From Aspergillus flavus (Eukaryota; Ascomycota; Eurotiomycetes; Eurotiales; Aspergillaceae): a stretch of 64,000 nt of DNA. The notes under the pieces were generated by a model that worked only from the letters and a program-made list of their open reading frames with translations, did no database searches and had not been told where the DNA came from. Shown here piece by piece: positions 22,632-58,337 of this stretch (position 1 is its first letter; every line of letters starts with the position of its first letter). The DNA lies in assembly GCF_009017415.1 (NCBI RefSeq), contig NC_092410.1:3472001-3536000 (forward strand), written 5' to 3'. The translations under genes were made by a program, and so were the position numbers.

Positions 22632-24494
22632 CTACAGTGTGTATCTGAACTCGGCCGATCCTTCGAGCAGTGTTGAGCCCCGACGAGCTTTTCGGTTGGC
22701 GAAAACGAAGCACACACTCAACGCTAGTACCAACAAGATGATCAAAGCTGAAGCACTGTTGTCGTATGACCCAGGTTACATATTTATTATAAAAGAATGG
22801 GACAGGGTACTCACACAAGATTGGCATAGATCCCAGGATAGTATTCAGGTGCATCTTGGGAGCGGAAGACCAAGGACCCAGCAATTCCCCCAATTCCACC
22901 CATTCCGATCATCATTGCACTTGAAAAGGCTCGTTTCCACTGACCACGGATGTTGCCCGCCTGGTATGCCAGAGCCGTGGGTGCGCTAGCGTTTACTCCT
23001 CCTGTCACCAGAAACACTCCAAAGTATCGAACTCCATTGCCTTTGGCCAAGCCCATCAATGAAATACCCACCAGTTGCATCAAAGCGTTAACAATAAGGA
23101 TTGGCCCTCGTAGCCGGTACTTGTCACCGAGCCAACCTTCAACAATCATGAGAATACAAGCCCATACGTATGGTGGTGCACTCAGATACTGTGATTCCCC
23201 GACGCTAAACCCCATACCATTGCGTAGGATCAATGGAAGAAAGTACCCGATGGCGTAGGTCACAGTCATCAGGCAACTAATCTTGCTGTCAGATTGTCTG
23301 TTGCCATGTTTGGAGGGGATTCAATACCAAAATATCAAACCGTAGCCCCAGAGCCGAATGTCCGCTGCATGTCGAAGAAAGTTCTTGACCGAGAAGTCCT
23401 CGGGCTCAGCATCGCCTCTGTCTCTATTCACCCGGCGGATGACAAAGGCGCACTCTCTTTCACTGAGAAATTTCCATGAACGATGTGCTTTGTCTGGGAA
23501 ATCCACAAGCATCACAAATGCAAGAAAGCCTATAGCCAACGTGATCTTTCCGAGTTAGAATATTCCTAGGTCAGCCTTCATGTGCAGTAATTAGTGGGGT
23601 TATGCCAACAGACCACGCCTTCGATAATAAAGATCCATCTCCAACCTTCGAGATTCTCGATGCCGTCCATGTAGGTAAGTCCATATGCAAGAATGTTGGC
23701 AATTGCTTGTGAGAAGAGACCAATTGAGTAGAACAACGAAAATCTCTTGTGCATGTCGTCTGAGCCATGTTAGTGTCACTATATTTAGGGGATAGTCATC
23801 ACTGATGCCACTTACATCTAGAATACCAGCATGACAATAGGTATACCACGCCGGGGAAATAGCCACTTTCAAAGGCTCCCATGAATGACCGCGCGATGAG
23901 GACATGCTTCCATGTTTTTGTAAATCCAATGCCCTAGAGGTTTTGTTAGCTATTATGTACCATACAGTGTGAATAACATACAATCGTGATGCCTCCCCAA
24001 CACATAATCATTGTGGTCAGGAAGTTTCGTGGGCCAAACTTTCGAATTGTAGCGGTTGCGAATGGCTGGCAGAGTACATATGGTATGAAAAATATGAGCA
24101 TTACCAAAGACTTTGCAAGACCGGTTAGACAAGACAAATCATGCTCTATCGGGGTCGTAAACTTACATAGCGATACCCTTCAGTCATCTTCAAATCCTCG
24201 TTCATTCTGAAACTATCAGTGACTTCCATGCGAAATTGGAACGCCAATAAGATAAATGAAATGAGTGGTTAGTGCGCAACTATCTTACCCTGCTATCGAG
24301 GCAGTCGAAGCATTAGATCTATCCATCAGGCTGATGCAGTACCCAAGTCCGGCGATAACAACAAGCCTCCGATCGACGCGGTGGACGATTGCTCTTTGCT
24401 CCTCGTAGGTATATTCTTCATCATCGTCAATGTTTGTCAGCTCATGCGCAAGCTTGTTAGTGGGAAAGCCTTTTTCGTTGGAATATGAAGCCAT
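22632..24494 (-). CDS. MFS transporter, anion:cation symporter (Dal5/Tna1-like) family
   Basis: Twelve-helix plasma-membrane permease of the ACS family, which imports small organic anions such as allantoate, nicotinate or pantothenate with protons. The protein starts MASYSNEKGFPTNKLAHELT and has an acidic N-terminal region, then RRLVVIAGLGYCISLMDRSN. Later exons give IPYVLCQPFATATIRKFGPR, GIGFTKTWKHVLIARSFMGA with FESGYFPGVVYL, LEGWRWIFIIEGV, VDFPDKAHRSWKFLSERECA (family-typical D-P in the central loop), YFLPLILRNGMGFSVGESQY, and the ALAYQAGNIRGQWKRAFSSA loop characteristic of this family. About eight short introns interrupt the gene, and the frame ends at a TAG at 22632-22634. No lesion was seen. 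The substrate cannot be read from the sequence. Confidence 0.9.
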
Positions 24495-30197: not shown

Positions 30198-31199
30198 TCA
30201 TAGTATCATATCTGGTACCTCCTGCGGAAGACTACCAACATCCTGAGGGTTGGATGATACAGACAATGGCCCGTCAGGCATGGTTGGGATAGACAGTGGA
30301 GAGACCCCGATGTTTAAATCTTTCACCAGAGTGAGTGTGAATGCACGAGCAATCTGGTATTCGCCCTTAGCATTCGGGTGAAGACCATCATAACCCACGG
30401 GACACGCTATCGGCGCGCAATCATAATTCTCGTGAAGCTCGACCAGTTGGACAGGTGAATCCGGGGTGCTCCATCCGGGAATCGCCTCTCGCAATAACGC
30501 ATTGTATATGTTGGTGCTGACGGGGAGATCTTCCCGACCGCTGATAAAGGTTCGCTGGGGAACATTCGCGATAGCAAATTTAAGTCTCGGATTAGTTGCC
30601 CTGGCATTCAAAATGAATGTCTGCATGCTGTCCACAGTACCTGCGGCGTCGGTGTGAAACCAGGCCATGTCGTTGAAGCCCAGCATCAGAAGTATCAAGT
30701 CGGTAGGGTAGGCGGCGAGAACATCATATATTAGTCCTTTGTCTATTGCGACGGCGCGGCCCCAAATCGCGAAATGGTCCTTATCAAAGTCCTCCGACAC
30801 ACCGGCTGCGTATCCCCCACTCGTTCTGATCTCGCTCTTCCAATGCGACTCTTCCTTGCCTGACGGGGTTGCCGGTAACGAGGGCAGGTCCGACTGTGCT
30901 GTGCCATTATATGGCCCTACAAAGTCTACAGGAAGTCCTTGGTCTTTAAACCACTCCCAGATGCGAAAACGCCAGGTCCAGTCGCCCTCTCGGCCCTGAG
31001 ACATAGAGTCACCCACAATCATGACTTTGAGCGTGGGCTCTAAAAGGCCGTGCGCCGTCATCTCATTGCCCGTCTCTTCCTCGATCGTGTCTCTCATGGC
31101 AGTCATTGTCAACATAACCAAAAGACAAATAATCGCCAAGCAAAAGCAGAGACTAGAGAGAGCTCTTGGGGCTGACAGCCGCCTCAGAGGGAGGACCAT
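30198..31199 (-). CDS. SGNH/GDSL-type hydrolase with signal anchor
   Basis: Single exon, 333 residues. An uncleaved or cleavable N-terminal hydrophobic segment (about 15-35) targets it to the secretory route. The SGNH blocks are all present: GDSMSQ at 63-68 (nucleophile Ser65), a conserved Gly in the IRTSGGYAAG region (about 124-133), GFND at 174-177 (oxyanion Asn176) and DGLHPN at 271-276 (catalytic Asp271 and His274). It is likely a secreted or cell-wall carbohydrate or lipid esterase. Fungal relatives often carry extra C-terminal repeats that this protein lacks. The ATG at 31199 is the only good start. The nearest genes are unrelated, and no obvious operon-like partner exists. Confidence 0.93.
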   Translation of the reverse strand: MVLPLRRLSAPRALSSLCFCLAIICLLVMLTMTAMRDTIEEETGNEMTAHGLLEPTLKVMIVGDSMSQGREGDWTWRFRIWEWFKDQGLPVDFVGPYNGTAQSDLPSLPATPSGKEESHWKSEIRTSGGYAAGVSEDFDKDHFAIWGRAVAIDKGLIYDVLAAYPTDLILLMLGFNDMAWFHTDAAGTVDSMQTFILNARATNPRLKFAIANVPQRTFISGREDLPVSTNIYNALLREAIPGWSTPDSPVQLVELHENYDCAPIACPVGYDGLHPNAKGEYQIARAFTLTLVKDLNIGVSPLSIPTMPDGPLSVSSNPQDVGSLPQEVPDMIL

Positions 31200-32227
31200 G
31201 ATGAATGATACTCGCAGATGTGAGATGCCATTTTCTTGGGTAGCACGGGGCCTTGATTATTTTTAACGCGCAACACTTTCCAAGGCAAGACAAAGAGTCA
31301 AATAGGCTAACGAGCACTAGCTAGAACGACGCTCATTTCATTCAATTCGATTGTGTGAGCACGGATGTTTCATTTGGCTATGAATGGTATATGTTTCTCT
31401 GAGTGGTCACTCTAGTCATAGTAATACATTAGTGGCATTCGCTTCTTGGCTACCAGCTACGGATCACACATTGAAAAGCGCACGATGTAACCATGAACGC
31501 TATCTCAATGATATGATTGAGCATTCAACGCCACGCTATCGCCATACTAAATCACATCAGGAAAAGCCAAGGCCCTAACTTATTAACTTCAATTAAGTGA
31601 GAGGAGAAAAATTCCCGCGGTCCCCTTTCAAGCCCCAACGGAAAGAAGGCCCTTGGAGATACCTTTCAAATAGAACTTAATTGTTCCTTTTTGCCGGATT
31701 CCCCTGTCGAACACTCTGAATACATTTAACGTTGTCTCCACTTGATGCGGTACGATAGCCGGATTGGGCTGCTGTACCCTTGGTTTGCTCGTAAAGACAT
31801 TCAGGATACGAACCACTAACGGCATCAAGTTCAATAGTGGGACGCAATCCGATCATAATGATTCGCAGGCAATCAAGTGCCGATCATGTCTTGACGTCAA
31901 AAACCCCCGTGTTCAGGTTTACACCTTCCTTACTATGCGAATTTTAAGAGGAAATCTCTGCACTGACTTGCATCTACCCGACGCCAATCTGATCCTCGCG
32001 ATGAATTACTCCCACAAGAATATTATTAGGTTCGGCCAAGCTTGCGGTGAACCGGATCGTCAATTTAGAGAATGCAATGTAGATCATGGATTGATTCTGG
32101 TCTAGATCAATCGATCACTGCCGTATCGGCTATTTGAGTTTTCAATAGCAGTGCTTTCTTTTCTCAACCTCCCCTTGGAACAATTCATTCTCTTCATTCA
32201 CCCATCTTGTCCCTTACTCGCAGTTTC
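31200..32227. promoter_or_regulatory. Divergent intergenic region
   Basis: About 1 kb between the divergent starts of the SGNH hydrolase (minus) and the 7-TM protein (plus). It holds both promoters. No coding or repeat evidence. Confidence 0.45.
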
Positions 32228-33172
32228 ATGCATGGGATCAGAGTCAGTCGCTCGATACTTACCACGCGGGCTCCGGACGACGAGCTGTTCCAGCCAAAGA
32301 ATGGCAGCTTCAGCTCCGTGGAGAAATATATCATAGCAGTGTTTGTCGCCATCGCCTGGTACAATGCTGCTGAGCTGATCGTCCTCTGTTTATCGACGTT
32401 CAAGGTCTACCGGGGATGGTACTTCTGGAGCCTGCTCATCGCGTCGCTCAGTCTCTTCCCAATATGCCTGGGCTACATATTCTACATTTTTAACCCCGGG
32501 ATATCGTATTATCTCTCGATCTCGCTGATCATTGTGAGCTGGTCCTGTATGGTAACAGGCCATTCCCTCATTCTATGGTCGCGATTACACCTTATCATCC
32601 GGTCACCCAGAGTGCTCCACCTAACGCTTGCAATTATCATCGTTGACGCAATCATATTCCATGTCTCCACGGCAGTCCTCCTATATGGTAGCCACGCGGA
32701 TAATGTTGCCCTGGCAAACCGATTTGCAAGAGGGTATGATATCATGGAGCGTGTTCAGCTGGTCGTCTTCTGCGTCCAAGAACTCCTGATATCCGGCATA
32801 TACCTGTGGGAAACGGCAAAGATGCTGCGCTTGCATCCCGGTCCACTTCACTATAAAATCCTCAGTCAATTCCTGATTATCAATATCTTTATCATTGTAC
32901 TCGACGTGGCTGTGGTCGGGATTCAATTCGCAGGCTACTATGCCCTTCAAGTGACTTTCAAGCCGGTGGCATATAGCCTGAAGTTCAAACTGGAATACGC
33001 GATTCTGGGCCGTTTAATAGCACTTGCCACGAGTCCATCCAGCTCTGAGCCATTCCCGTCTAGTTCGCTGGGGTCGACTGGCGTAGTTGAAAGCCGGCCT
33101 GCTCATGGAAGGCGACATCGGACCTTTGTGTCGGAACCCTCAGAGCGAGGGCGGGAAAAGCGAAAATTTTGA
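32228..33172 (+). CDS. Fungal seven-transmembrane protein (DUF7703-like)
   Basis: Single exon, 314 residues from the ATG at 32228; the same frame is open upstream from 32207, but without an ATG. Seven hydrophobic segments are visible: YIIAVFVAIAWYNAAELIVL, YFWSLLIASLSLFPICLGYI, ISLIIVSWSCMVTGHSLILW, LTLAIIIVDAIIFHVSTAVL, ERVQLVVFCVQELLISGIYL, FLIINIFIIVLDVAVVGIQF and a final amphipathic helix at LEYAILGRLIAL. The W-Y-N-A-x-E-L-I-V-L opening and Y-x-x-x-Y-F-W-S-L-L motif are those of fungus-specific integral membrane proteins I recall as DUF7703. The C-terminal about 50 residues are Ser/Arg-rich and cytosolic-like. Function is unknown; a receptor or sensor role is a guess. Confidence 0.85.
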   Translation: MHGIRVSRSILTTRAPDDELFQPKNGSFSSVEKYIIAVFVAIAWYNAAELIVLCLSTFKVYRGWYFWSLLIASLSLFPICLGYIFYIFNPGISYYLSISLIIVSWSCMVTGHSLILWSRLHLIIRSPRVLHLTLAIIIVDAIIFHVSTAVLLYGSHADNVALANRFARGYDIMERVQLVVFCVQELLISGIYLWETAKMLRLHPGPLHYKILSQFLIINIFIIVLDVAVVGIQFAGYYALQVTFKPVAYSLKFKLEYAILGRLIALATSPSSSEPFPSSSLGSTGVVESRPAHGRRHRTFVSEPSERGREKRKF

Positions 33173-37135: not shown

Positions 37136-38242
37136 ATGTCATCCCAAGCGACCCCCCTTCCTCTCTGGGAGGCCCAGCGATCACCGGTAAAGAAGAGTAA
37201 TCACTCCCCAGACCTCCTCTCGTAGGGCATCCAGCAAATAAGGCTCTAATTCTCTGTGAAGTTGAAGACTACCGAGCAGGGTATCCCAGATACATTGCAC
37301 TTCTCTCATCTCATAGTCCACATTCCTATGCAGATCTTTCAACCGCCTTCGAGCTCGAGTCCTCCTGCTGAAGCAGGACAGGCTGTCGCTCCTGGAACAT
37401 AAACTAGATAAGCTTGACCAGGAAGAATCCCGTGATTTATATCTTGGTCGCAGCCGGAACGATAAAAACTTAGAGCGAGTTACCACGCTAGCTGAGATTG
37501 ATTCTTGTCTTATGGATTACGGTAACTACTCTGGTTTAATGATATCAAACTTGCCTAAGATCGTGACGTGGCTTCTTAGATAACTACCTTGAGCGGACAC
37601 GCCGCACATTGGCACTTGGACCCCCATCCCAGAGAGAGACTCAGGCTCTACAGAATTGGCTGGATGGGACAGGCATGATAGCCAGGGAAGAGCGAGCTTA
37701 CCTCTCGCACTCTCGAGATTTAGTCACTGTATCCCCAGCAGATGATACGGCCATGACGCACCTAGAAACATGGGTTGAAGACCAACTGATCCGCTATTAT
37801 CGTGGTTTCAGAAAAGTACAACCCACACGCCCACTCATGGTGGCTGCCTTGCAGAAGGAAAAGTAACTAACTTGGCAATAGGGACGATATCATGATACCT
37901 CGATCGACGCAAACGTATATATCTATTCCGGGCCATTGATCAAACGAGTGGCGAAAGCATTACTTTTATTCGTGATCACGATGCTTCTTTTGGCGCCGGT
38001 TATTCTATGCAATGTCACGACTAGCGCCACACTTCGAGTGGTGATCATTATGACCTTCACCATATCACACCTCCTCATCCTTTCTATCCTGGCTAAGTCA
38101 AGGACCATAGAGCTTATCATTGCAGGGGCAACGTGAGTTTAGTTTCATTGCGTGTTTTATCCTTTTGCGGAGATCCCCTTGCATGCTGATTCTTCTAAGG
38201 TACGCGACGGTGTTGACAGTCTTCCTGTCGAATGGGTCGTGA
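37136..38242 (+). pseudogene. DUF6594 membrane protein with an apparent frameshift
   Basis: The family, fungal proteins with an N-terminal helical domain and three C-terminal membrane helices, is clear. After a short first exon (MSSQATPLPLWEAQRSP, start 37136-37138), the frame gives EDYRAGYPRYIALLSSH (GYPR hallmark). Near 37300-37330 the reading must shift by one base, with a TAG at about 37306 in the second frame, to continue RSFNRLRARVLLLKQDRLSL. A further exon (from about 37577) has TRDx-like LSHSRDLVTVSPADD, and the last exons have KALLLFVITMLLLAPVILC, LRVVIIMTFTISHLLILSIL and YATVLTVFLSNGS with a TGA at 38240-38242. All other splices work, so either a recent single-base indel or an assembly error disables it. 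Function of the family is unknown. Confidence 0.7.
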
Positions 38243-38999: not shown

Positions 39000-40032
39000 C
39001 TACTGTGGTGGGCCTGATAACCAAACAGTCTCAGAATCAGGCTCGGGGTCATCATCCGGTAGTGCGTGCTTGTCAGCCCATTCAACAATCTTGTCAAACT
39101 TGCGGCACTTGTGCTCCGTACTAAAGTCAGGATACAGACCCCAGGGATGGACCCAGTTATATGTGACTATACCGACATCGGCTTGGCACATCAGGACCTG
39201 TCGTAACATATCGATACAGTGGTCGACGTGAGCGCGAAGTACAGGTTCCGAGTCAGTAAAAGGCTTGGGTCTGTTCTCTGGGCGGTGGTAGTAGTCTTTG
39301 TAGGTATACTGGCGTATCAAATTCTGTCACTTGTCAACATTTATAGATCCATGTAAAGCTAGAGGTTGACCTCAACATACCAAGCAGTGCATGTGGTGGA
39401 AAACCTCAATGCCAGTATAGTACTGCCCCCCTTGTTCCTTTGGGTACTTGGCGGCTATACGCGACTTTTGGATACGATCTATAACATTGCCATCAACTCC
39501 GGAATTGTTCGCTGGCTATGTCAGCTTTGTATGGTTAACAAAAGGAGATGACTAAGGAAGCTCACTGTGTATAAGGACCTCCCATGCTTCATCGAGCTCC
39601 TTATTTGGCGTGCCCTTGTAGACATTTTGATGTTCCAGGGCACCCTGAAACCTAACGTATTCATATTCGATCGCTCTGGGGTCATCAAACAACGGAGCTA
39701 TTATTGTCAGCCTTGGCCATCATTCATGATATGAGATACCACCTACAGTAGTAAGATGTTTTCGCGGCACATTCGGATTCTGAACACTGATGCTCATAGC
39801 GGTGGGACACGAGCAGTATAACAATAATACTTAGAAGTAGTATAGTGTTAACTGCAGCTACGACCTTCCCCCCCGCCCTTGCCCAAAAAGAAGAGCGAAA
39901 AGGCGTTTTGCGGACACGCCCTAGCAAACCCATATTGTCTTCCTGGTCTTCGGCACCATCGGAGCTTTGTGAAAACCTCTTCTCGTCGGAGGCTAGAGGA
40001 TCATAGGCCGCCTCTTTAGTCTGAAATGACAT
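39000..40032 (-). CDS. UstYa-family (DUF3328) oxidase, RiPP cyclisation
   Basis: Four exons (39747-40032, 39566-39697, 39381-39511, 39000-39323) give 290 residues with consistent phases. The N-terminus is cytosolic and acidic; one membrane helix lies at about 57-75 (KVVAAVNTILLLSIIVILLV). The lumenal domain has the family's Y-x-x-x-FQ and W-x-x-L segments, then the two catalytic metal-binding HxxHC motifs: HHMHC at 178-182 and HVDHC at 215-219. UstYa proteins cross-link side chains of core peptides in ustiloxin-, phomopsin- and asperipin-type RiPPs, in the secretory pathway. The gene is divergent from the repeat precursor at 41089 (1,056 bp between starts), which is the expected partnership. 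Only one UstYa gene is in view, so a single type of cross-link is likely. Confidence 0.95.
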
Positions 40033-41088
40033 TCTTGCGATGAGTAGAGTGCACGACTCAATGTTGCAACTGGAAGCTATGGAAATGAAGGAAGAGCCTG
40101 CTGAAAACACAGTCTTGTGCAAACCAAGCTCCCAATTGCTTTTAGTTTATCCCACTGATTGAGTATAGGGTCCTTCGATCTCTCTTGCTACCTTTACCCC
40201 TCTTTTGCGAGAACCACATCCTAGAGACGCGTAATCATGCAGCTTCTTCATGTAAGACATATTGCGTACTAGAAGTATAGTATTGCAAATATGTGGTAGT
40301 GAAAGATGTCTGCCTACACTGCCCTACCCTTGCTAGATGAGGAGTGGGACGCTTACTACATGCAGGAGTAAAGATGGAACTTGATTGGAGCGATGATGAT
40401 CAAGAAAAAGTAAGCACTAACTAATGATGCAATGTAACCCTAGGCGGGATTGTCTGGGCCACGGTCCGAACCTGATTGTCAGGTTAATCTGCAGTGCCTC
40501 GACCCTATGGGCCCGGTGCAGTAAACCTATGCTTGCGCCATGCAATGCTTACATGGCGATCACACACTTCACCAGACCAAGATCTATCGCCTTTCGCTCA
40601 CCGGCCTTTTACAAGGGTATTGGATTTCATCAAGCCAGTAGTCATACTTCGTGGTTCCGATTGGTATATGATCGACACATAAGACCGAGGCGATGTTGCT
40701 ATAGCTTACGCAACAGCATCAGGAGGGGGGTCTCTAAAGCCTTCTCCTCAACAGGCTTTGTCTTGCTCCAACCGCTGTAGTATATGCAACATGCCAGTAA
40801 AGGCAAGTAGGTGAGGGCCTTTCTCAATTATTTACGGAAATCGCGGTACCCGGACCAGTTCCTAGTGATATCCATTCAAGGCAGGAGGCCTATCGACAGC
40901 CACACATTACGAATCCAAGCCTGTGGGAGCAAATAAATCCCTCACCATCTTTACCATACGTTTATCGGCAGGAAGAAGTTTAAGAACCCATCTATCCGCC
41001 AGCCAGTTTCATTATTATCCAAACAAGCAAGACATAATATTATCATCCATCCTCCTTCCAAGCTTGAAACTCAGACTGCTGCTCCAAG
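40033..41088. promoter_or_regulatory. Divergent promoter region of the UstYa/precursor pair
   Basis: 1,056 bases between the two divergent starts. Open frames at 40424-40780 lack recognisable domains. Coordinated control of the two genes from here is an inference from the head-to-head layout. Confidence 0.5.
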
Positions 41089-41584
41089 ATGCGTTTCACT
41101 GCAGCTTCACTAGTGACTCTCGGGCTACTTGCCTCTGCTCTGGCTTTTCCGGCCCCGGCCAACTCTCTTGGAGTGTAAGCTAGCTATCTTGTCATCGTGA
41201 AGCAGGAACGAGCACTGGTAACTAATATTGGGTAGTCGTGAGCCATCCAAGGAGAAATACGATGTCTACGATGTTCCCGACAAGCGGTCCAAGGAGAAGT
41301 ACGATGTCTACGACGCCGTCGACAAGCGGTCCAAAGAGAAGTATGATGTTTATGACGTCCTCGACAAGCGGTCCAAGGAGAAATACGATGTCTACGATGT
41401 TTCCGACAAGCGGTCTAAAGAGAAGTACGATGTCTACGACGTCGTCGACAAGCGGTCCAAAGAGAAGTATGATGTTTATGACGTCCCTGACAAGCGGTCC
41501 AAGGAGAAGTACGATGTGTACGACGTCCCCGATAAGCGGTCCAAAGAGAAGTATGACGTTTATGATGTCCCCGAGGAAGAGTAA
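41089..41584 (+). CDS. Kex2-processed repeat precursor of a dikaritin/ustiloxin-like RiPP
   Basis: Two exons (41089-41174, 41236-41584) give 144 residues. Residues 1 to about 19 form a signal peptide (MRFTAASLVTLGLLASALA), followed by a short pro-segment FPAPANSLGVREP. Then come eight 14-residue units of form SKEKYDVYD-x-x-D-KR. The seven internal boundaries are Lys-Arg, the Kex2/KexB cleavage signal; the last unit ends PEEE with no KR. SKEKYDVYD is identical in all eight. Only the two positions after it vary (VP, AV, VL, VS, VV, VP, VP, VP). The two tyrosines are likely cross-linking residues for the UstYa enzyme next door. This is the UstA-type precursor layout, but the core differs from the YAIG (ustiloxin) and FYYTGY (asperipin) cores known to me. 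Up to eight peptides per precursor are predicted. Confidence 0.95.
41246..41581 (+). repeat. Eight tandem 42-bp units in the RiPP precursor, with 126-bp higher-order period
   Basis: Units start at 41246, 41288, 41330, 41372, 41414, 41456, 41498 and 41540. Unit 4 is nearly identical to unit 1 (one base), unit 5 resembles unit 2 (three bases) and unit 6 resembles unit 3 (two bases), including shared synonymous codon choices. This points to duplication of a three-unit block (41246-41371 to 41372-41497) rather than one unit at a time. Units 7 and 8 resemble 2 and 3. Confidence 0.93.
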
Positions 41585-41903: not shown

Positions 41904-42668
41904 TCAATTCCCGATCTCCCGTATCATAAAGTACGCTCCATATTCACCAGCACCTCCATATTGCGAGTCATCCTGAATGACTCGATCCACCTCCTCAAAC
42001 CCTAAACGCGCATACACCCCACGACCAGCCTTATACGACATGGTAACAGTCGGCAAGCCGATCGATTCCGCCGCCCTAACACCAGCAGCAACAAGCGCCG
42101 TCGCAATTCCTTTCCCCTTATTCCTAGGATGAACCGCCAGATAGTCAAGCTCTATAGTAACAATCAGCCAACTCAACAAGTTCCCTAACAAGAACTATCC
42201 TCACCCCGCCAACTTACTCATATACGGCCTCTGCACCAGTATACGACGCATAACCTCATCATTCGAATCATCGATCGAATCCATATCACTTCTCCCACCC
42301 CACCACGCCGACTCCGCCAATGCCTGGAATCGTGTTTTCTCCTCGTCGCTCACGTCCGGAATCTGCGCCTCCCCCCACTGCGGAGTCCCATCTTCTGCAA
42401 CAACGTGCGTTTCCGGTAAAATCCACCGCGCGTATCCGACTAACTCGCGCGTGATGGGATCGACAGCCTTCAGGTGACGAGTGTTGTGACGGGAGCTTAG
42501 CAGGCTCCTGGGGTACCGCTTTGCGCATTGGGAGATTAGATAGTCCAGTGTGATTTCCTTGGGCCATAGAAGGATCCATGTTGGGTCTTCCCAGAAGGCT
42601 GACATGTTATTGTCGGCTAAGGCGGGGGCGTCGGCGATACTGCATCGTTCGGTTTTCCAGGGTGTCAT
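41904..42668 (-). CDS. GNAT-family N-acetyltransferase
   Basis: Transfers an acetyl group from acetyl-CoA to a primary amine of an unknown substrate. Two exons (42218-42668, 41904-42151) join to 232 residues using the donor GTAAGT right after the codons for RPYM. Exon 1 covers the N-terminal strands, with MTPWKTERCSIADAPALADN and ARWILPETH. Exon 2 holds the acetyl-CoA motif A, LDYLAVHPRNKGKGIATALV (R-x-x-G-x-G/A), then motif B GRGVYARLGFEEV. An alternative donor two codons later gives a frame break, so the GTAAGT model is preferred. It is convergent with the RiPP precursor, so a tailoring role (acetylating the peptide's amine) is conceivable but unproven. No targeting signal. Confidence 0.9.
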
Positions 42669-43675: not shown

Positions 43676-44464
43676 TTAGAAGTACTTCCTGTTCCTGGCC
43701 GTCGACGTGCTAGTCGAGGATGAGGCCGACGAAGTCTCAGTGGCGGTGCTAGAGGGGGATGCAGAGCTAGAAGTACCACCGCCAGTGCTAGTGGAGTTCA
43801 GGGTTGCGACCAGAGGACCGACGTTAACCTTCTGGCCACAAGGGCCGGAGGGCGCAGTCACGCACTTGTTGAAATAGGTACCCAGCTGGCCGGTCTGATT
43901 ACCGGTCTTGAGGATCTGGTCTGGAGTATAGGCGGGGATCAAAGAGGTGCTGTTCGAGGGGAAGAAGGTGGAGTTCGTCTCAGTACCGAGGTAGGCGGCT
44001 TGGGCGCTGTGCTGGGCAGCCAGACGAGCTAGGAGGAAGGCGACCTCAGGAGACTGGGTGTAGGCGGCCAGGCCGATGAGGCCACCGGCAACGGTCTGCT
44101 CGACCTGCAGGGCGTTCTTGAGGAAGCTGTTGGCGTCCTGAGATTGCGGGATGGTGATGTTGCAACGAGGAGTGGTGAAGTTGGAGAGGTCGTTGCCAAC
44201 CTGCTGCACGGCCCGGATGCCCAGACGGTTCTCACGGGTGATGCCCTTGAAGTTGGGTTCGTAGTTTGCCTGGGAGGCGTTGGTGGCATTGTTCAGGAAG
44301 GTCTGGTTGAGGGATTGAGACGACCAGAACCGTTCGGACAGATGCTGGAGAGCCCAGGCGAACTGAAGGGTCTGGACATCACCAGACTTGGGCGAGCAGT
44401 CGGAGCTCTGGGCGAGAGCAGCTCCGGCCAGAAGGAGGCTGCTCAAAGCAGAGAAGATACGCAT
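43676..44464 (-). CDS. Secreted ferritin-like domain protein
   Basis: Single exon, 262 residues. The signal peptide is MRIFSALSSLLLAGAALAQ, with likely cleavage after ALA. The mature N-terminus is Cys-containing, then FAWALQHLSERFW and, later, LKNALQVEQTVAGGLIGLAA and FLLARLAAQHSAQAAYLGTE, helices typical of the fungal ferritin-like family (Rds1-like, Pfam Ferritin_2). Six or more N-glycosylation sequons (NQT, NAT, NAS, NFT, NIT, NST, NQT) are present. The last about 45 residues are a Ser/Thr/Ala-rich stalk, suggesting cell-wall association rather than a clear GPI signal. Relatives are induced by stress or starvation, and the catalytic status is unclear. It lies near the RiPP locus, but no functional link is visible. 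Confidence 0.85.
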   Translation of the reverse strand: MRIFSALSSLLLAGAALAQSSDCSPKSGDVQTLQFAWALQHLSERFWSSQSLNQTFLNNATNASQANYEPNFKGITRENRLGIRAVQQVGNDLSNFTTPRCNITIPQSQDANSFLKNALQVEQTVAGGLIGLAAYTQSPEVAFLLARLAAQHSAQAAYLGTETNSTFFPSNSTSLIPAYTPDQILKTGNQTGQLGTYFNKCVTAPSGPCGQKVNVGPLVATLNSTSTGGGTSSSASPSSTATETSSASSSTSTSTARNRKYF

Positions 44465-45730: not shown

Positions 45731-48700
45731 CTATGAGTCATCCACAAGCCGTTTATGTTCCCAGGCCTTCTTGGCACCGTCCAAAAGGACCTCCATATTC
45801 CCACTGTTGTCACACATGCCTCGGAAAACACCATCTTCCCGGTTGATAAGGGTCCACGGATGGTCGTACTCCACCACACGGCCGTGATCGAGCACCAGCA
45901 CCTTGTCGTAGTCAATGATCGTCTGCAAGCGGTGTGCAATCGTGATGATAGTGCTGTCCCGGAGTTCACGTAGCGTCTCCTGGATTCTGGCATCGGTGTT
46001 ATAGTCAATGGAAGCCGTCGCTTCATCCATCATCAGTACTTTGGGGTCCTTAAGAAGCGCACGGGCGAGACACATAAGCTGCCTCTGTCCTTGGGACAAA
46101 TTAGATCCAGACTCCGAAATCGGTGTCTCAAGGTTGAGGAAGATGTTCTTATTGTCAAGAACGACAGTGCCATTCGCTGTCGCGACGGGTTCCGCGCTGT
46201 TTACCACAGGAGTTGCAGTTCCTGATGTTCCAGAGCCGATCAAGTGAACCCGACGGAGCGCGGTGAATATTTGCTCATCCGTGAAGAGATTGAATGGGTC
46301 GAGGTTGCTCCGGATGGTGCCTGTGAAAAGAGTCGGGTCTTGAGGCACAATCGTGATAGACTCTCGCAGGTCGCGGAGCCCAATAGAGCCGATATCTACA
46401 TCATCAATGACTATACGTCCCTTCTCAGCTTCAAGGCCACGGAAGAGAGCAAGGGCCAGTGAGCTTTTGCCCGCGCCAGTGCGGCCCACGATGCCGACCT
46501 TTTCACCCGGCTGCACAGTGAAGGAAACGTTGCGAAGAACAGGATCAAGGTCCGGCCGGTAACGTGTAGTGTAGTTGGTAAATTCAACAGCTCCGCCACT
46601 AGGCCAGTGGGCTGGCGGCCTTGACTCGGAAATAACCGCCGCCGCCTCTTGCTCTACCTCAAGATACTCTTTCACTCGTTCAACAGAGTTCATGTTCTGT
46701 TGAACTTCGGAATAGAGACGGACCAACCAGAGAACATTCTCCGTGAATGTAACTGCGTATGTCAGCGCAAGACCAGCAGCGCCGGCGTCAATCTTTCCGA
46801 TACTGAGCAGGACGAAGACAGCAGTAAAGAAGGAGACCAAGGCACCACACCAGTCAACGCGAAGGGCAAGCCAACGATTACTGGCCCAAAGATAAATGTG
46901 CGGCCGGTTGTAGTCGTTGATGCGCCGATGATTGTCCACAATGAACCTAGGCCCGTCGCCGTAGGCACGAATGGTAACAATTCCATTAAGGGTCTCGCCG
47001 AACTGTTGATACAAAGGACTCCTCTGCACAGACTCTAGTCGCTTGAGATCACGAGAGGCATTCAAGTACACAGCTCCCAATGCAAAGTAGACCAACGTAA
47101 TGAAGACAGCCGCAATCAAGAAACCGGGCATAATCACGGAAATCAGAGCCACAATCATTACCACAGTGGCAAGGCAGTGAAGCATACCAATTGCCACCGG
47201 AGCAACTTCTTGGTCGACAGCTTCAACATCCTTGGAAAACCTGTTCATCAATTGACCGAGAGGTGTTGAGTCGAAAAACTTGAACTTAGCATGCATCACG
47301 GCATTCAAAAGACGCTTGTGGATCTTATTGGATGCATGCAGCGAGCCCCAGAACAGAACACCCTCTCTGACCAAGGAAATCATGATGTAAAGCAATCCAA
47401 GAATCGCATATACACCGAGATAGTAGGCAACATTAACATCGCCGTAGGTCCCCGTGGCTACCCGTGTACCAAAGTGGGGGGCACTCTGTGTGGAGGTTCG
47501 TGGGACACCCCCAGCATTGAATGACGGGATCTTGAAACTCGTTATGGCAGCGTAGTCTCCAACATCATCTGTTCCGACATGCTCAGTCTGATAGGAGTTG
47601 GCCCACTGTCTGATCCAAACATTCGTAGATACAGATCCCAGTTGCTGTAAGCAGAAAACGCACAAAGCGCCCGTCCAGTAGTACCATGAGCCCATAGAGA
47701 GAAGGTACATTTTGATGGTTGACCACTTGATACTACCAGTAGCCTTTCCTTCCACCAACTTAGGTCGTGCCTCCTCTTGTTTTTGACCTTTTCCGGCTGA
47801 GCCATTGGTAATTCCACCGTTGGTGGCATGCGACTCGTCCTCATGACGGTCTCCGAGATCGGTCGGCATTCGAGAGGGACGTTGAGAGCTAGACCTAGAT
47901 GTGGGTCGCGACTTGAGAAGTTCGTCGCCCAGCACTCCGGACGCTGCCACCTTGTCCGGACGTCCCTGGGCGACCACCTTACCGTTGTCCAGGACGATGA
48001 CATGCTCCGCTTGCGGGACAGTAAGAGCAATGTTGTGGGTAACAAGCACGCAGGTTCGGTCAAACATCAACGGTCCTAGAAGAGCCTCTCGGAAAATGTG
48101 CTTGGCAGTGTGGGAGTCTACGGCACTCAGACAGTCGTCCAACAGGAGGTGGCGCGCCTTGCTGTAGATGGCACGGGCGAGGGATATCCTCTGCTTTTGT
48201 CCTCCTGAAAGACTGATACCCTTCTCACCTACGATAGTCTGATCACCGGCATCGAGGATACTGAAGTCTCGTTCCAGAGCGCAGGCCTTTACCACAGCAT
48301 TGTAGCGACGTTGATCCCAAGGTGAGGCAAAAACAATATTTCCCTTGACGGTATCATTGACTAGCCACGCTTCCTGCGCACAGTACGCCACGCTCTCCAT
48401 AAGACCCGTCTGTGGGTCGACCGGAAGTTCTGTCCGGCTAGAGGTTCCACCGGGTAAATGAACGCTACCTTCCAGGAGTTTCATTTCTCCCAGGAGTGCC
48501 ATCAGGAGAGATGTCTTGCCAGAGCCTGTGGCTCCAGTAATGATATTTAATTTGCCAGTCCGGAATGATACATCGATATTAATCAAGCGAAATGCGTCCG
48601 TAGTATCACTCTGCGGGTCATCTTTATATTGGCCCTTGGAGCTTCCCCAGGTAAGCGTGGCATTCTCCAGCGCAATCTTAGGTGGCTGTCCAGCAGAGTT

Positions 48701-50782
48701 GCTATCTTCCAACTGATTGTATTTCTGGGTTTCCTCCTCGTTGAGGAATTTATCCACACGGTCCAGAGAGACTTTTGATTCTTGTACGTGAGCCACCATA
48801 TCGGCCAGCTGATCCAACGGAATACGAAGCAACGAAAACATCGACAGGGCCGGGAAGGCAACCGACGGTGTCAGCTTCTTCTCCTCCACAACGGTGTACA
48901 GGAAAAACGAAGCGAAAGTGATAATAAGTGGTGTTCCGTACCAGACGGTTGCTGCCGTGGACCAGATAATGTAGCGGTAGCGTAATGCTTTGAGTTCCGC
49001 CTTGCGTTTCTCGTTGACGGTATCTTCAAAGCGCTGCTCCCATGCGAAATACTTGATGATCCTGATGTTCTGCAGTATCTCATTGGTGGCGTGTATGCGA
49101 GCGTCGGTTGAAGTCAAGATCTGGTTTTGGACCTTTGTAAATTGCTTTGCGATGAACAGGTTCACCGGCAACATGAAAACCATTATGACAATGCCAGCGA
49201 ATGAGCTGAACCCAAGAAGCCGGTACAGAAGCGTGACGGCGATAGTGATCTGCACCGGCACACTAGCCCACAGAAAATGAAGGTAGGCACCCACCTCGCT
49301 GACCTTGAAGGAGTCAATCGCCATCAAGTTGATGATGTTACCTGTATTGGCCGAGTGAGCATCGTCATCTTCTCCAGATTCCTTTGCATTCTGGCCATCT
49401 GCCTCGGGATCTGTCGTTGTGGCCTTCTTTTTCTTTCGACCGAAGGTGAAGACTCTCTTCTTCTTACTGATAGGGGTAGTTTCTTCGGGCTTTTTCTTGC
49501 CCGCATCGCCAGAGGCTCCCGCTTTGCGCCTCAGAGCTTTGGCGTAAATCTCGCCGATGATAATGGCGCGAAGTTTCACGCCCAGCTTGCGCCCTATCCA
49601 GAGAGCTTGTCCATCCGCAACACCCTGAATAGCTCCCGAGCAGAACAACAGAATGGCAAACAGCCAAGCGGCATTCGCAGTGGTTGACCTCGGATCTTCC
49701 ACATATTCCAAGATTGCCTTGAGCAGAATGGTAGGTAAGTACGTAAAAAGGCATGAGAAGATCGTCCATGAACCTTGCCACAAGAGCGTAGGCCAAAAAT
49801 AGCGACCAAGTCTCCAAACTAATGCGCCCTTATACTGCCTCCGGCGAAAGTCTTCCAGCACGGTTGCTGCTTTTTGGGATGAGGTCAAATTCCAAACGTC
49901 GTCGAGTTCCAGAGCTTGTCTATAGCCCTTTAGGATAAGGGGATCTAGCCAGGAAAAGGTTGCTAAGGAGAACAAGCTGGCAGTTGGATGTCTCGCTGGC
50001 TGGATACCATCCTCGTGTGGAACTAATACGGCCTTATTTCCTCTGCGCGTAGTCACTGCAATGAGAAGGAGAAGAGTAGATAGAGAAAACTCCACCGCGC
50101 TGAAGATTGTAGCACGCCTTGAGACGGGATGAATGACGGCAGACCGGAACACAAGAATATTGAACAACCACTGGAGCCCGTACAGGCAAGCGGTGTGATT
50201 CCAAATCCTAGGAAGCAGATGCAAGTCCAGAGTAGAGAGAAGCAAGCGAATCAATGCCAAAAACAGGATATAACTCCACGAAACTAGCTTCGCCACCGCA
50301 GAGAGTTTACCGCTGTTGCCCCAGGTATTTGTCCACAGAACCGCGATGAAGACGGCCACTTCTCCCAGAAGCGCCACTACTTCGAGCGTTATCAGAGCGA
50401 CTTCGCCTCGAGGGCGATCGACTTCAAATTGTAACAATTCCTCTTCCGCGGCCTTGGACAACATCCGATCCGTTTCTTCTCCATGCCCCTCAGCCACTTG
50501 GGCACCAGTTTCCGCAGCATCATCCACGAGGATCTTGTACGAGACACCTTTTCGAGAGACGAAGTAGCAATAAGAGACGCGAAGTACGATAAATAAAAGC
50601 GAGAGCCCACATGCGGTCAGTGGTAAAATGACTTGTAGATAACTGCGATTGACAATGGTGAGTATATGGCTCTTCGATCACATTTAAGAGATGGACTGGG
50701 AAGAGTGTCGATCATACTTGCGTTGAAAGCAACGGGAAACGTCATCGATGGCCCAAATGGGGCCATGGCATTCCGGCGTCAT
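45731..50782 (-). CDS. ABCC-type full-length ABC transporter (Ybt1/Ycf1-like)
   Basis: ATP-driven exporter of conjugates or bile-acid-like compounds, usually in the vacuolar membrane. Two exons (50718-50782, 45731-50642) give 1,658 residues. The short first exon encodes MTPECHGPIWAIDDVSRCFQ, and a 75-nt intron joins it to the TMD0 helix YLQVILPLTACGLSLLFIVL; without it only a non-ATG start is available. Layout: TMD0 (to about 190), TMD1, NBD1 with Walker A GATGSGKT (about 727) and signature LSGGQKQ (about 833), a charged linker, TMD2 with GQLMNRFSKDVEAVDQE, NBD2 with GRTGAGKS (about 1409) and LSQGQRQ (about 1538) then LMMDEATASID. NBD1 has a non-consensus Walker B Asp (LLLDDCLSAVD), as in this subfamily. 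It is intact. Confidence 0.97.
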
Positions 50783-52757: not shown

Positions 52758-53571
52758 ATGGCCGAACGTATCTTGATGAACGAATACAAGACCCTCGCCA
52801 AGGAGCCTTGGGTCAATATCGAAGTAAGCCTTCCCAGGGTCCTACACCCCGTGTGACTGGGCTTAGCTAACGGTCTTCTGTCCGCCAGCTCGATAACGAG
52901 GACATTTTCAGGTGGACTATCGGATTAATCGTCCTCAACCCCGACTCCTTGTACTACGGCGGTTATTTCAAGGCGTCCATGAAATTTCCCAAAAACTACC
53001 CTTTTTCCCCCCCAGGTAAGCAGCACCGTCAACCCACGGCTCGGAATTCGTAACAGCGACTGACTCGGAATTTTCAACCATAGAGTTCGCTTTTCGACGC
53101 CCGCTGTACCACCCCAATATCTATCCCGACGGGAAACTCTGCATCTCGATTCTCCACGCACCAGGCGAAGATGAAATGTCGGGCGAGCTGGCCTCGGAAC
53201 GATGGTCGCCTGCTCAACGCGTCGAATCTGTCTTGATCTCCATCCTCTCGTTACTAGACGACGCGGAAGTGTCGTCCCCCGCCAACGTCGACGCTGGCGT
53301 GACGCTGCGGAAGGAACCCGAGGAATACAAGTCGCGCGTCCGGAAGGACGTTGAGATTTCGAAGCAAGATATCCCCGAAGGCTTCGTCATGCCGACCCAC
53401 CAACCAGCAACAGTGAAGCCCGTGGAGAAGGACGATTCGGATTTCTGGGCGGAAAGCGATGCAGACGATGACGTGTTCGGAGGAAGCGACTCGGACGAAG
53501 ACATGGACTTTGACGACCAAGATACTGGCAGTGATGAAGAAGAGGAGGAGGAGGAGAAGGAGCGGTCGTGA
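52758..53571 (+). CDS. Cdc34-type E2 ubiquitin-conjugating enzyme
   Basis: Transfers ubiquitin to substrates, typically with SCF ligases that drive G1/S cell-cycle protein turnover. Three exons (52758-52823, 52889-53015, 53084-53571) give 226 residues. The UBC fold includes the HPN motif at 74-76 (HPNIYPDGKLC) and the catalytic cysteine at 84. The Cdc34/UBE2R insertion after the active site (HAPGEDEMSGELASERW, about 88-104) is present and separates this from ordinary E2 enzymes. After the fold (ends about 170) an acidic tail of Asp/Glu-rich repeats (SDEDMDFDDQ, GSDEEEEEEE) matches the tail that Cdc34 uses to bind the SCF cullin. The intron positions and residue phases are all consistent. Nuclear/cytosolic, likely essential. 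Confidence 0.97.
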
Positions 53572-55131: not shown

Positions 55132-56741
55132 CTATGCAACAACAGCACCCTGGATCTCACTGTAAATAGCTCCAAGCTCCTCAGCGAGCAACTTCTCGGC
55201 CTTGTTGACTAGTCCGTCAAAGCGGTCCTTAAGGTTGTCACTGCCGGCCTTGTATCCACCCTTGGCGACAATCTGGGTGTAGTTGTCGGCACCACCGCCG
55301 TTCCAGGCGAGAAGCTAGAATAAAACAGTTAGCCACTTTCTGTTTCATTATACCAAAATGGATAATATAACTTACGTTGGGGGTGTCAGATGGGATATCA
55401 GTAAGGGCACCCTGGGTGGCGATGGAGATGATATCCTTCTTGAGCTTGGCAGGAGTAAGCTCATCGACAGCGAAAGCAGAGTCCTGAGCAGGCTGCAGAG
55501 AAACGAAGTAGGCCAGCAGACCAGCAATGTGAGGAGAAGCCATAGAGGTTCCAGAGATGGTGTTGACAGCGTGCTTGCTGCCAGTCCAGGTGGAAAGAAT
55601 GTTGAGACCCGGGGCAAAGATGTCAGTGCACTTTCCGTAGTTGGAGAAGTAAGCACGCTCATCCTGAAGGGTCGAGGCACCGACAGTGATGGCATTCTCA
55701 GCGGCAGCAGGGGAGTAGTTGCAGGCATCGGCATTGTCGTTACCAGCAGCAACGGCGAAGTGAAGACCAGCCTCAACACCAGCATTGACAGCAGCCTCAA
55801 GGGTCCTGGACTTGCCACCACCAAGACTCATGTTGGCAACGCTGCCCTTGAAACCCTTGACCTTGCCATCTTTGGCGTCCTTAGCCTTCTTGAGGTGGGA
55901 CTGGACGGCCCACTCGACACCCAGAACGACATCGGACATAGTGCCAGAACCGCTGGACCTCAAGACCTTGACGGCATAGATGTTGGCCTTCTTGGCAACA
56001 CCGTACTTCTTACCAGCAATGGTTCCGGAGCAGTGAGTTCCGTGTCCGTTGCCATCCGCATCCTCATCATTGCTAGGGATGGTCTTTCCCCAGTGTGCTC
56101 GATCCTCGAAATCGACATGCTCAATGTTGATACCAGTGTCAATAGTATAAGCATCGACACCCTCACCGCCTTCCGAAGCATACAGGTACTTGTTAAAGGT
56201 ACCGAACGAGAGGCTGTCACGGTGAGAGATACGAGCCAAGCCCCAGGGAGCATTCTTCTCGGTTGTCTCCTCCATGGTGTGGACTTCGGTGTCTTTCTCG
56301 ATGTATTCAACCTTGAAAATCAAGTTAGACCAAGGGCTCTTCAAAAACGGGTGGGCCGAGGGGGAAACCTACATCAGGATGTCTCCGGACCTGCTCGATC
56401 ACATCCTCATGGAAATGTCCGGAGTAGCCCGCTAGGGACCCGGCGATATCGAAGGTGTTCTTGAGACCGAGGTAAAGGTCATCACTGAAACCAAAAAGAG
56501 AGCGCTTCTTCAGGTCGATGCGTCCAGTCATCGAATCGTGGATGTCCTGCACCCAGGTGTGATGAGCAGCAGCCGTTTCAGCGGAAACATGCTTCTTGAA
56601 GACGACAATGTAAGAGTCTGGAACCTCTTTGGCATTTGAGGCCGAAAGAATGGGAGCCGCTCCGTTGTGGATGGAGTCAACAGCAACGGGGGAGGCCGCT
56701 GCTAGTAGTGGCAGCAGGGAAAGGCCGAGGATGCCTCTCAT
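55132..56741 (-). CDS. pepC: Vacuolar subtilisin-type serine protease (PepC, Asp f 18-like)
   Basis: Proteinase K-like endopeptidase of the vacuole; this type is also a known allergen. Three exons (56373-56741, 55376-56311, 55132-55314) give 495 residues, the usual length. Residues 1 to about 16 form the signal peptide (MRGILGLSLLPLLAAA). The I9 propeptide inhibitor domain (DSYIVVFKKHV, about 37 on) precedes the mature enzyme, which starts after about residue 135. The catalytic triad is in place: Asp181 in DTGIN, His213 in HGTHC and Ser379 in GTSMASPH; the oxyanion-hole Asn is 314. The start at 56741 was chosen over the in-frame ATG four codons upstream because it puts the signal peptide first. 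A large opposite-strand open frame here is a shadow. Regulation is not visible from the sequence. Confidence 0.97.
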
Positions 56742-58337
56742 GATGGGCAACAAGAGTGACGTCTAACACAAGGTACAGAAGGGGGAAAGGAGAGTTCTAA
56801 GAGGAAAGAATACAGATGGAGATTTAAGGTAAAAAGAAAGGAAAGATGGGAGGATGGAACGATGCTGAGTTGGGGGGGTTAAAAGGAAGAAGGAGGAGGA
56901 AGGATGGATGAGGAGTTGGAGAAGAGGAGGATGGGAGCAGGTGTAAGATAGCTGGGCTTAATAGGTCGATCCCCCAAGCAGGCAAGGGCAGCGGAGGATG
57001 ATGCAACCGGGATACGGTAATTTACAATGATGACACAGCTTTACTGAGGAGGTGCCGCGCGTCGATCGCTCCCGATTAGCGCGGTCGCAAGACCTGGGGT
57101 ATGGCGGTAAGAGGGTAATGGATCCCCAAAAAGGGACCTTTCGGAGTGATTAGTCCACCCAGGAATTAACGCTCAGGTTCCATGGGTGGACGCCATCGGG
57201 GGACGAAGGCACAATGGTGTCGAAAAATGAGGCGAATGAGTGGAGTCTGCACCCTGTATTCTGCAAGTATGTTTGAGAGCTCTTCCAAGGATAGCTCGAG
57301 TGGTGAGTCAACGATGGACAAGGTACCCATTCTGGAGTAACTGCCTAGTTGATTCGTTCGGTTTAACCGCCGTTGTAGTACATTATACGGACTCAACATA
57401 CATATATGTCCCTATCAGGGTGAGATATCCCTCTCAACAAAAGCCGAAAGTGATCCTCCAACGATAGGCAGTAATATCCTACGGTACTTTTTGAAATAAG
57501 TCCTAAAATCCTGTTGCCATCAAGGTACTGCAGGTACAGTACCTAACCGACTCCTCAAAGTGGTACTGCTTATTAGGTTCCTGAGACGAAAAGAGTTGGC
57601 ATGTTAGGTAAATGGCGTTAACGACTGGTCGCCACCGCCAACCACCTTCCCGGGCAACCCGAGTCGCGTGCCATGGGAGCACGCCCATCTTCCGTTGTTC
57701 GCCTGACTTTTGACAAGAAGCCGATCGTACGGAAACCGTGGCAGACCATAGACGCATTACCGCCCAGTACAATACAGGTAATACAGGCGGTCGGGCTTTA
57801 CGGGAGATAAGACATACCTCTCTTATCGATACTTATCTCTCCACCAATGAAGGACCGCCGACGGTCGGAGGCTTTTGTCACCTGATAATCCCTAGGTCTG
57901 AGAGCTGGAAAATGCACCCATGCTCCGATGTGCCCCCGCTTAACGGCACTGCCTCTCCAGTGACGTTGGCATAAGACCGTCTATCACATTCAGGAACCAT
58001 CCTGAGGGTGTAGAGGGAATTATTGCTCTCGACTCACAACTCCGACCTTGACCAGGATAACCCTCATCCCGGATGCTGAATTCGACACAATCGGCCTTGT
58101 CCTTATTCCTAGAGTAGTGCAATTGTTGATCGTCTGACTCGTCAGCTCTCCCTTCCGTTCCCCTCCCTCCCACTACGGCTGTGCCATGTTGGAAAACTGT
58201 GTGGATTACATTCACGACTAGCTACCATAACGCATACCAATGCAGACCGCCTTCATCCTTACACTAAGTGCTGGCTCATGGTGTCTGATGGTCTCTGGCC
58301 ATCGAATAGGTAGTCGGGGATAAGCTTCAGCGGCGCA
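56742..58337. promoter_or_regulatory. Divergent intergenic region upstream of PepC and the BEACH gene
   Basis: About 1.6 kb. 56770-56950 is purine-rich on the plus strand (C/T-rich in the PepC direction), which resembles a fungal promoter/leader. No gene is supportable. Confidence 0.45.

What the first reader, a model, noticed from the sequence alone, without database searches (positions are those of the whole stretch)
39000..41584. Candidate new dikaritin/ustiloxin-type RiPP locus
A secreted 144-residue precursor with eight Kex2-bounded repeats lies head to head with a UstYa protein carrying both HxxHC motifs. This pair is the minimal signature of cyclic ribosomal peptides such as ustiloxin, phomopsin and asperipin. 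The conserved core (KYDVYD, with two Tyr three residues apart and two to three Asp) is not one of the cores I know (YAIG, YVIPI-like, FYYTGY), so the product would be a new acidic, Tyr-cross-linked peptide.
Basis: partly seen in the sequence, partly recalled or inferred. Interest (0 to 1): 0.92.

Follow-up and report, generated by a model that had tools for sequence, protein, structure and literature searches.

The report
Two-gene fungal cyclic-peptide locus, YxxYD core
An Aspergillus (flavus/oryzae group) gene pair encodes a secreted repeat protein that is probably cut into short tyrosine-rich peptides and cross-linked by a neighbouring copper-type oxidase; it belongs to the known ustiloxin/asperipin kind of pathway, but I found this peptide in none of the open papers I could search, and a related pair seems to occur in a distant fungus.

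Summary
A 144-aa precursor (+, 41089-41584, one 61-nt intron) with eight 14-residue repeats, seven ending in Lys-Arg, lies head to head with a 290-aa UstYa/DUF3328 protein (-, 39000-40032, four exons) carrying both HxxHC motifs. In the SKEKYDVYD part all differences between repeats are synonymous (106 of 106 codon-pair differences).

New evidence: precursor relatives in A. oryzae, A. parasiticus and A. pseudotamarii (3-6 repeats), and a weak but shuffle-proof one in Nemania abortiva (Sordariomycetes). Its locus tag is next to that of a 64%-identical UstYa, on a contig of the same length, so the pair probably recurs in another class. In these five precursors 23 of 23 repeats keep Y-x-[V/T]-Y-D; the first Asp is not conserved, so the core is YxxYD, not KYDVYD.

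Best reading: a minimal asperipin-like dikaritin pathway with one UstYa and no tyrosinase match in the window. Product, cross-link, expression and function are untested. It is a new member of a known kind, perhaps already listed unnamed in published survey tables that I could not read.

The parts
39000..39323 (-). UstYa-family gene, exon 4 (to stop), holds second HxxHC
   Evidence: splicing; product differs from A. flavus P0003 only at residue 100, in exon 2
39216..39230 (-). second HxxHC motif (HVDHC, residues 215-219)
   Evidence: sequence; H215, H218, C219 in at least 90% of 43 homologues
39381..39511 (-). UstYa-family gene, exon 3, holds first HxxHC
39384..39398 (-). first HxxHC motif (HHMHC, residues 178-182)
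   Evidence: sequence; H178 invariant in 43 of 43, H181 and C182 in at least 90%
39566..39697 (-). UstYa-family gene, exon 2
39747..40032 (-). UstYa-family gene, exon 1 (ATG, disordered N-terminus, probable membrane helix residues 48-80)
   Evidence: helix 48-80 and pLDDT under 50 for residues 1-4 and 9-47 in the model of P0003
40033..41088 (.). divergent intergenic region, 1,056 bp, presumed promoters of both genes
   Evidence: gene positions; inference, no promoter evidence for a fungus obtainable
41089..41174 (+). precursor gene exon 1; residues 1-19 look like a signal peptide (MRFTAASLVTLGLLASALA)
   Evidence: signal peptide judged by eye, no predictor run; near-identical start in P0002 and P0046
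41175..41235 (+). intron, GTAAGC...TAG
41236..41584 (+). precursor gene exon 2 (to stop)
41246..41581 (+). eight 42-nt repeats SKEKYDVYDxxD(KR), seven KR sites (last unit ends EEE), 126-nt higher-order period
41904..42668 (-). GNAT acetyltransferase gene (two ORFs taken as one gene), convergent with the precursor and about 320 bp from its stop; membership of the locus unknown
   Evidence: Pfam Acetyltransf_7 E=1.7e-07 on ORF 41907-42191, no family on ORF 42204-42668; lichen Clan R2 clusters pair one UstY with GNATs

Best explanation
A minimal dikaritin-type (asperipin-like) RiPP locus. Shown: a repeat precursor with Kex2-type Lys-Arg sites and a UstYa-family protein with both HxxHC motifs and a probable membrane helix, divergently transcribed; synonymous-only change in the repeated SKEKYDVYD; probable recurrence of the pair in Nemania. 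Inferred: the precursor enters the secretory path, Kex2 cuts after Lys-Arg, a Kex1-like carboxypeptidase removes the basic pair and releases 12-mers SKEKYDVYDxxD. In the Glu-Pro (or Asp-Pro in Nemania) headed copies a Ste13-like enzyme could remove the dipeptide and leave Ser-Lys/Arg-Glu at the N-terminus. The lumenal UstYa domain, acting as a copper oxidase, cross-links the YxxYD core, and unknown peptidases trim the ends. Most likely bond: first-Tyr phenol oxygen to the beta-carbon of the Val/Thr two residues on (the Tyr-x-Ile spacing of ustiloxin and phomopsin). Alternative: an ether from one Tyr to the beta-carbon of the other, as in asperipin-2a. The biological role is unknown; my guess is a secreted secondary metabolite or signal made in small amounts.
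For: UstYa family with both HxxHC motifs; helices 175-190 and 209-230 of the model carry them, as reported for the copper enzyme CctR (PMC12435403, part 1 of 3 read). Precursor architecture. Synonymous-only change in SKEKYDVYD. Relatives in A. oryzae, A. parasiticus and A. pseudotamarii. Nemania precursor relative P0048, tag 266667, next to UstYa homologue P0015, tag 266668, both with contig length 208,535; P0048 scores 37.0 bits against at most 15.8 in 10,000 shuffles (profile built). 23 of 23 repeats of the five named precursors keep Y-x-[V/T]-Y-D. DUF3328 genes are enriched next to such precursors, most of all in the adjacent position (PMC7329392 section 7). One UstYa is present in the asperipin-2a pathway.
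Against: No product, transcript or enzyme activity seen. No tyrosinase match in the window, although ustiloxin- and phomopsin-type rings need one. Among 20 ORFs scanned no reductase; the only peptidase is a subtilase 14 kb away (55241-56368) and the nearest transporter an ABC gene 4 kb beyond the precursor, neither with any shown tie to the pair. P0047, an unlabelled relative, has Arg, not Val/Thr, two residues after Tyr, and one of its three units has lost both Tyr. P0048 by database E-value is weak (0.073). Adjacency in Nemania rests on tag numbers and contig length; the DNA was not seen. Synonymous-only change can partly reflect copy homogenisation.
Confidence: 0.72

Rival explanations
1. 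A secreted linear Kex2-processed repeat peptide (signal or effector-like) whose UstYa neighbour does not modify it; UstYa works on another substrate.
For: Many Kex2-repeat peptides are linear and minimally modified (passages of PMC9769878); 6,120 of 7,878 surveyed precursors have no DUF3328 gene near (PMC7329392); the X-Pro dipeptide ahead of the first repeat (P0048) resembles Ste13 sites of pheromone-type precursors.
Against: Adjacent divergent UstYa here and probably an adjacent one in Nemania; two Tyr kept in 23 of 23 repeats of the five named precursors.
Confidence: 0.2
2. The pair is silent or decaying: an unexpressed relic.
For: No expression data; the A. oryzae protein record starts upstream and lacks the signal peptide; copy number varies from 3 to 8 in the Aspergillus precursors seen.
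Against: Open frames, intact splice sites and only synonymous change in codons 1-9 of the repeats; UstYa 289 of 290 identical to A. flavus P0003.
Confidence: 0.05
3. A larger cluster in which the neighbouring GNAT acetyltransferase and ABC transporter modify and export the peptide (an extension of the best explanation, not exclusive of it).
For: GNAT gene about 320 bp from the precursor stop, ABC gene 45731-50677; lichen Clan R2 clusters combine one UstY with GNAT genes (PMC12048977 passages).
Against: GNAT and ABC genes are common (general knowledge); no test of linkage in relatives was possible.
Confidence: 0.2

Closest known systems
Asperipin-2a pathway (A. flavus)
   Same: Kex2-repeat precursor, a single UstYa-family enzyme, small gene set, several Tyr in the core (passages of PMC6514808; PMC7329392 section 7)
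   Different: Different core; that set also has a transporter and an isoflavone-type reductase. Here no reductase was recognised among 20 ORFs scanned and the nearest transporter is an ABC gene 4 kb away
Ustiloxin B and phomopsin pathways
   Same: Kex2 repeats, UstYa enzymes, Tyr with a beta-branched residue two positions on (ring between Tyr and Ile: PMC7329392 passage)
   Different: They use two or five UstYa proteins plus a tyrosinase and more tailoring genes; no tyrosinase match in this window; here a second Tyr and Asp follow
Epichloecyclins (GigA)
   Same: Repeat precursor with signal sequence and KR sites, Tyr-based cyclisation reported (PMC6514808 passage)
   Different: Four repeats and a heptapeptide ring; no sequence comparison was made here
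CctR, cyclochlorotine hydroxylase
   Same: DUF3328 family, membrane helix, HxxHC(x)nHxxHC motif (PMC12435403 part 1 of 3)
   Different: Acts on a non-ribosomal cyclic peptide; hydroxylation, not macrocyclisation

Membership tests
Kex2-processed repeat protein (KEP) | N-terminal signal peptide | tested here: inconclusive
   MRFTAASLVTLGLLASALA-FPAP judged by eye; no predictor run (sequence)
Kex2-processed repeat protein (KEP) | Tandem near-identical repeats separated by dibasic Kex2 sites | tested here: met
   Eight units, seven KR
Dikaritin RiPP | UstYa/DUF3328 gene close to the precursor gene | tested here: met
   Adjacent and divergent, 1,056 bp apart; Pfam E=2.2e-58
Dikaritin RiPP | Two HxxHC motifs in the UstYa protein | tested here: met
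   HHMHC 178-182 and HVDHC 215-219
Dikaritin RiPP | Tyr in every repeated core | tested here: met
   YxxYD in 23 of 23 repeats of five named precursors; in unlabelled P0047 2 of 3 units
Dikaritin RiPP | Cyclised, post-translationally modified product | not testable with these tools
   Needs LC-MS
Ustiloxin/phomopsin subtype | Tyrosinase in the cluster | tested here: not met
   15 Pfam tyrosinase matches in the genome (counts are lower bounds), none in the window; nearest on the same contig about 2.5 Mb away
Ustiloxin/phomopsin subtype | Two or more UstYa-family genes in the cluster | tested here: not met
   Of 34 UstYa matches in the genome (a lower bound) one lies in the window
Asperipin-2a subtype | Reductase and transporter beside the pair | tested here: inconclusive
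   20 selected ORFs of the window scanned: no reductase, an ABC transporter 4 kb beyond the precursor, an MFS match below the curated cut-off at 22.8-23.3 kb; multi-exon genes and the 24-30 kb stretch were not modelled

The most novel reading that the evidence does not exclude
The pair is the founding case of a separate, class-crossing dikaritin type with a Y-x-[V/T]-Y-D core, in which one copper UstYa enzyme, without tyrosinase or reductase, makes a ustiloxin-like Tyr-O-C(beta) ring on Val/Thr (perhaps plus a second bond at the second Tyr), and which reached the Aspergillus flavus group from Sordariomycetes by horizontal transfer.
Probability: 0.2. Interest if true: 0.55.

Novelty: new member of a known kind. 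Interest (0 to 1): 0.4.

Why it matters
A 2022 review counts five reported dikaritins (PMC10512285 passage), although 1,758 of 7,878 surveyed Kex2-repeat precursors have a DUF3328 neighbour (PMC7329392 section 7). This pair is small (two genes), its precursor also occurs in A. oryzae, a food-fermentation species, and it is probably kept as a pair in a distant fungus. That makes it a tractable case for asking what one UstYa enzyme alone does to a Tyr-x-x-Tyr peptide and whether tyrosinase-free cyclisation at Val/Thr occurs.

Tried and rejected
Known products: the cores printed in the held papers for ustiloxin, phomopsin and asperipin-2a are absent from the translated precursor, so this is none of those loci. 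Recent paralogy inside the genome: the best-scoring other UstYa match is 37% identical over residues 118-272 (short pieces reach 50% over 58 residues), so no close paralogue. Solved structures: no sequence match and 0 of 58 Foldseek hits at E<=0.001; uninformative. Bacterial-type promoter scan of the intergenic region: four sigma-70-like sites against 1.6 expected, no meaning in a fungus. A degenerate DNA pattern found nothing, not even the array itself; badly written, discarded. Horizontal transfer: in a 34-row tree A. flavus UstYa groups with 14 non-Eurotiomycete rows (support 100/99), and holding all 13 Eurotiomycete rows together is rejected at p-AU 0.027, but holding it with the two Penicillium rows P0022 and P0024 alone is not (p 0.058). 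Nine of 43 rows (long or distant branches) had been dropped and the groups were named after the first tree, so transfer and old paralogy with loss both remain.

Literature: core strings were searched in the held library only (0 papers; 9 papers, by title on other subjects, none opened). Passages read in PMC7099791, PMC6339444 and PMC4419862 do not mention this core. Nagano 2016, Ye 2019 and Umemura 2014 were not read and are known only through citing passages.

Full report
What is there. The window is contig 6, 3472001-3536000, of an unnamed 37.74-Mb, 8-contig genome. Its UstYa protein differs by one residue of 290 from A. flavus P0003 (AFCA_009803), so I take it to be the A. flavus/oryzae group; the strain was not determined. 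The precursor gene runs 41089-41584 on the + strand with one intron, 41175-41235, and encodes 144 aa: a signal-peptide-like start (judged by eye), a short pro-region ending VREP, then eight 14-residue units, seven of them ending in Lys-Arg. TRF shows the 42-nt array and a 126-nt higher-order period, so the array probably grew by three-unit duplications. The UstYa gene runs 40032 to 39000 on the - strand in four exons, with 1,056 bp between the two coding regions.

Is it more than chance. Among the eight repeats, codons 1-9 (SKEKYDVYD) differ at eight nucleotide columns, all third positions. Of the codon differences over all pairs of copies, 106 of 106 keep the residue. In codons 10-12 the split is 19 same residue to 35 different; the KR codons do not vary in seven copies. 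Random drift of the array would not be expected to do this; selection on the peptide is the simple reading, although the pairs of copies are not independent and homogenisation of copies cannot be excluded. A whole-genome search with the precursor at E<=10 matches only its own two exons. The genome gives 34 exon-level UstYa matches (a lower bound), one of them in the window.

Relatives of the precursor. Two database searches found P0001 A. oryzae (six repeats; its record starts upstream and lacks the signal peptide), P0046 A. parasiticus (three), P0002 A. pseudotamarii (four, core YAVYD/YATYD), and two weak ones: P0048 Nemania abortiva (two repeats, E=0.073) and P0047, an unlabelled 903-bp contig (E=0.012). 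One search scored only the 7,989 candidates sharing most words. Against a profile of three Aspergillus precursors (built) P0048 scores 37.0 bits and P0047 32.9, while the best of 10,000 shuffles each reached 15.8 and 15.7. P0048 is F5Y10DRAFT_266667 and the Nemania UstYa homologue P0015 is F5Y10DRAFT_266668, both listed with a contig of 208,535 bases. Adjacent tags and equal contig length make adjacency very likely; I could not see the DNA. Nemania is in Sordariomycetes, Aspergillus in Eurotiomycetes. This is the strongest new evidence that precursor and UstYa belong together. Whether the other UstYa relatives (P0004-P0014 and on) have such a precursor beside them was not testable.

What the comparison says about the core. 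In the five named precursors (window, P0001, P0046, P0002, P0048) 23 of 23 repeats keep Y-x-x-Y-D, and the residue two after the first Tyr is Val or Thr in 23 of 23; the residue right after it is Asp, Ala or Ser (sequences; motif positions). The repeats are related, so the 23 are not independent. P0047 does not fit fully: two of its three units keep YxxYD, both with Arg at the third position, and one has lost both Tyr. Papers state that ustiloxin and phomopsin rings join Tyr to the Ile two residues on (PMC7329392 passage) and that asperipin-2a has ethers between Tyr side chains and beta-carbons (PMC6514808 passage). Both geometries fit YxVY. I favour Tyr1 to Val/Thr because of the kept beta-branched residue; this is inference.

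The enzyme. Pfam UstYa, E=2.2e-58 (with a query mis-spliced at one junction). In an alignment of 43 homologues H178 is invariant and H181, C182, H215, H218 and C219 are at least 90% conserved. An AlphaFold model of P0003 (mean pLDDT 75.5, pTM 0.63) shows a disordered N-terminus, a long helix 48-80 and helices 175-190 and 209-230 that carry the two motifs. This resembles what is described for CctR, a membrane-associated dimeric enzyme with a binuclear copper centre at HxxHC(x)nHxxHC (PMC12435403, part 1 of 3 read). No solved structure matches by sequence at E<=0.1 or by fold at E<=0.001. That this protein binds copper is inference from the family.

Its kin. The listed proteins nearest to P0003 are from Xylariales and a few others: 64-72% identity in alignment A3 for P0004-P0015, 62% for Claussenomyces (Leotiomycetes) and 65% for Coniochaeta (Sordariomycetes), against 32-55% for the Aspergillus and Penicillium proteins in the list. 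The best-scoring paralogue match in the own genome is 37% identical over residues 118-272, short pieces up to 50%. In a 34-row tree (9 of 43 rows dropped for length or distance) the A. flavus protein groups with 14 non-Eurotiomycete rows, support 100/99. One clade of all 13 Eurotiomycete rows is rejected (p-AU 0.027); a clade with the two Penicillium rows P0022 and P0024 alone is not (p 0.058). The groups were chosen after the first tree. Horizontal transfer is possible; old paralogy with loss is equally so.

Neighbourhood. Of 20 selected ORFs scanned against Pfam 12 matched a family and 8 none. The matches are a GNAT acetyltransferase (41904-42668, convergent with the precursor; match on its downstream ORF only), a Ferritin_2 protein (43676-44464), an ABC transporter (45731-50677), a GDSL lipase (30198-31256), a DUF7703 protein (32138-33172), a DUF6594 fragment (37609-37866), a ubiquitin-conjugating enzyme (53020-53571), a subtilase (55241-56368), an Arm_4 repeat protein (58314-60986), a thioredoxin (14941-15408), a fungal rhodopsin-domain fragment (20402-20827) and an MFS match below cut-off (22811-23320). 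No tyrosinase match lies in the window; the nearest on the contig is about 2.5 Mb away. Genes split by several introns and the stretch 24-30 kb were not modelled. The GNAT is worth a test because lichen Clan R2 clusters pair one UstY with GNAT genes (PMC12048977 passages).

How it probably works. Shown: gene structures, motifs, synonymous-only change in the peptide, probable linkage in Nemania. Inferred: secretion, Kex2/Kex1 processing to 12-mers SKEKYDVYDxxD, Ste13-like removal of Glu-Pro or Asp-Pro from the copies that carry it (Ste13 acts on X-Pro/X-Ala: PMC9769878 passages), oxidation by UstYa in the Golgi or a later compartment, and trimming by peptidases encoded elsewhere, as suggested for asperipin-2a (PMC8703953 passage).

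Known or new. It works like, and by the tested features belongs to, the Kex2-repeat plus UstYa class (dikaritins); the defining chemical feature, a cyclised product, was not testable. It fails the ustiloxin/phomopsin subtype on tyrosinase and number of UstYa genes. Surveys report 94 candidates (PMC6514808 passage) of more than 40 types in Aspergillus and 1,758 DUF3328-linked precursors in fungi (PMC7329392), so this pair may already be in a table that I could not open. The string searches gave 0 and 9 papers, the nine by title on other subjects and not opened. Hence: new member of a known kind, moderate interest.

Noticed in passing
window 41904-42668 (-): GNAT acetyltransferase gene ends about 320 bp from the precursor stop, convergent; possible tailoring enzyme in view of lichen Clan R2 clusters.
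   Followed up: partly
G000 contig 5, 114463-121277 and 128300-129046: Dense run of at least five UstYa-family genes with a tyrosinase match about 7 kb further on: a large candidate RiPP or peptide cluster, not looked at.
   Followed up: no
window about 40307-41584, compared with P0001: The A. oryzae record of the orthologous precursor starts upstream of the signal peptide, so automatic surveys that require a signal peptide could miss it.
   Followed up: partly
window 41246-41581; P0001, P0046, P0002: Repeat number varies: 8 here, 6 in A. oryzae, 3 in A. parasiticus, 4 in A. pseudotamarii; the array has a three-unit (126-nt) higher-order period.
   Followed up: yes
P0047 (unlabelled 903-bp contig): A further relative with KEKYDRYD-type units from an unknown organism.
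   Followed up: partly
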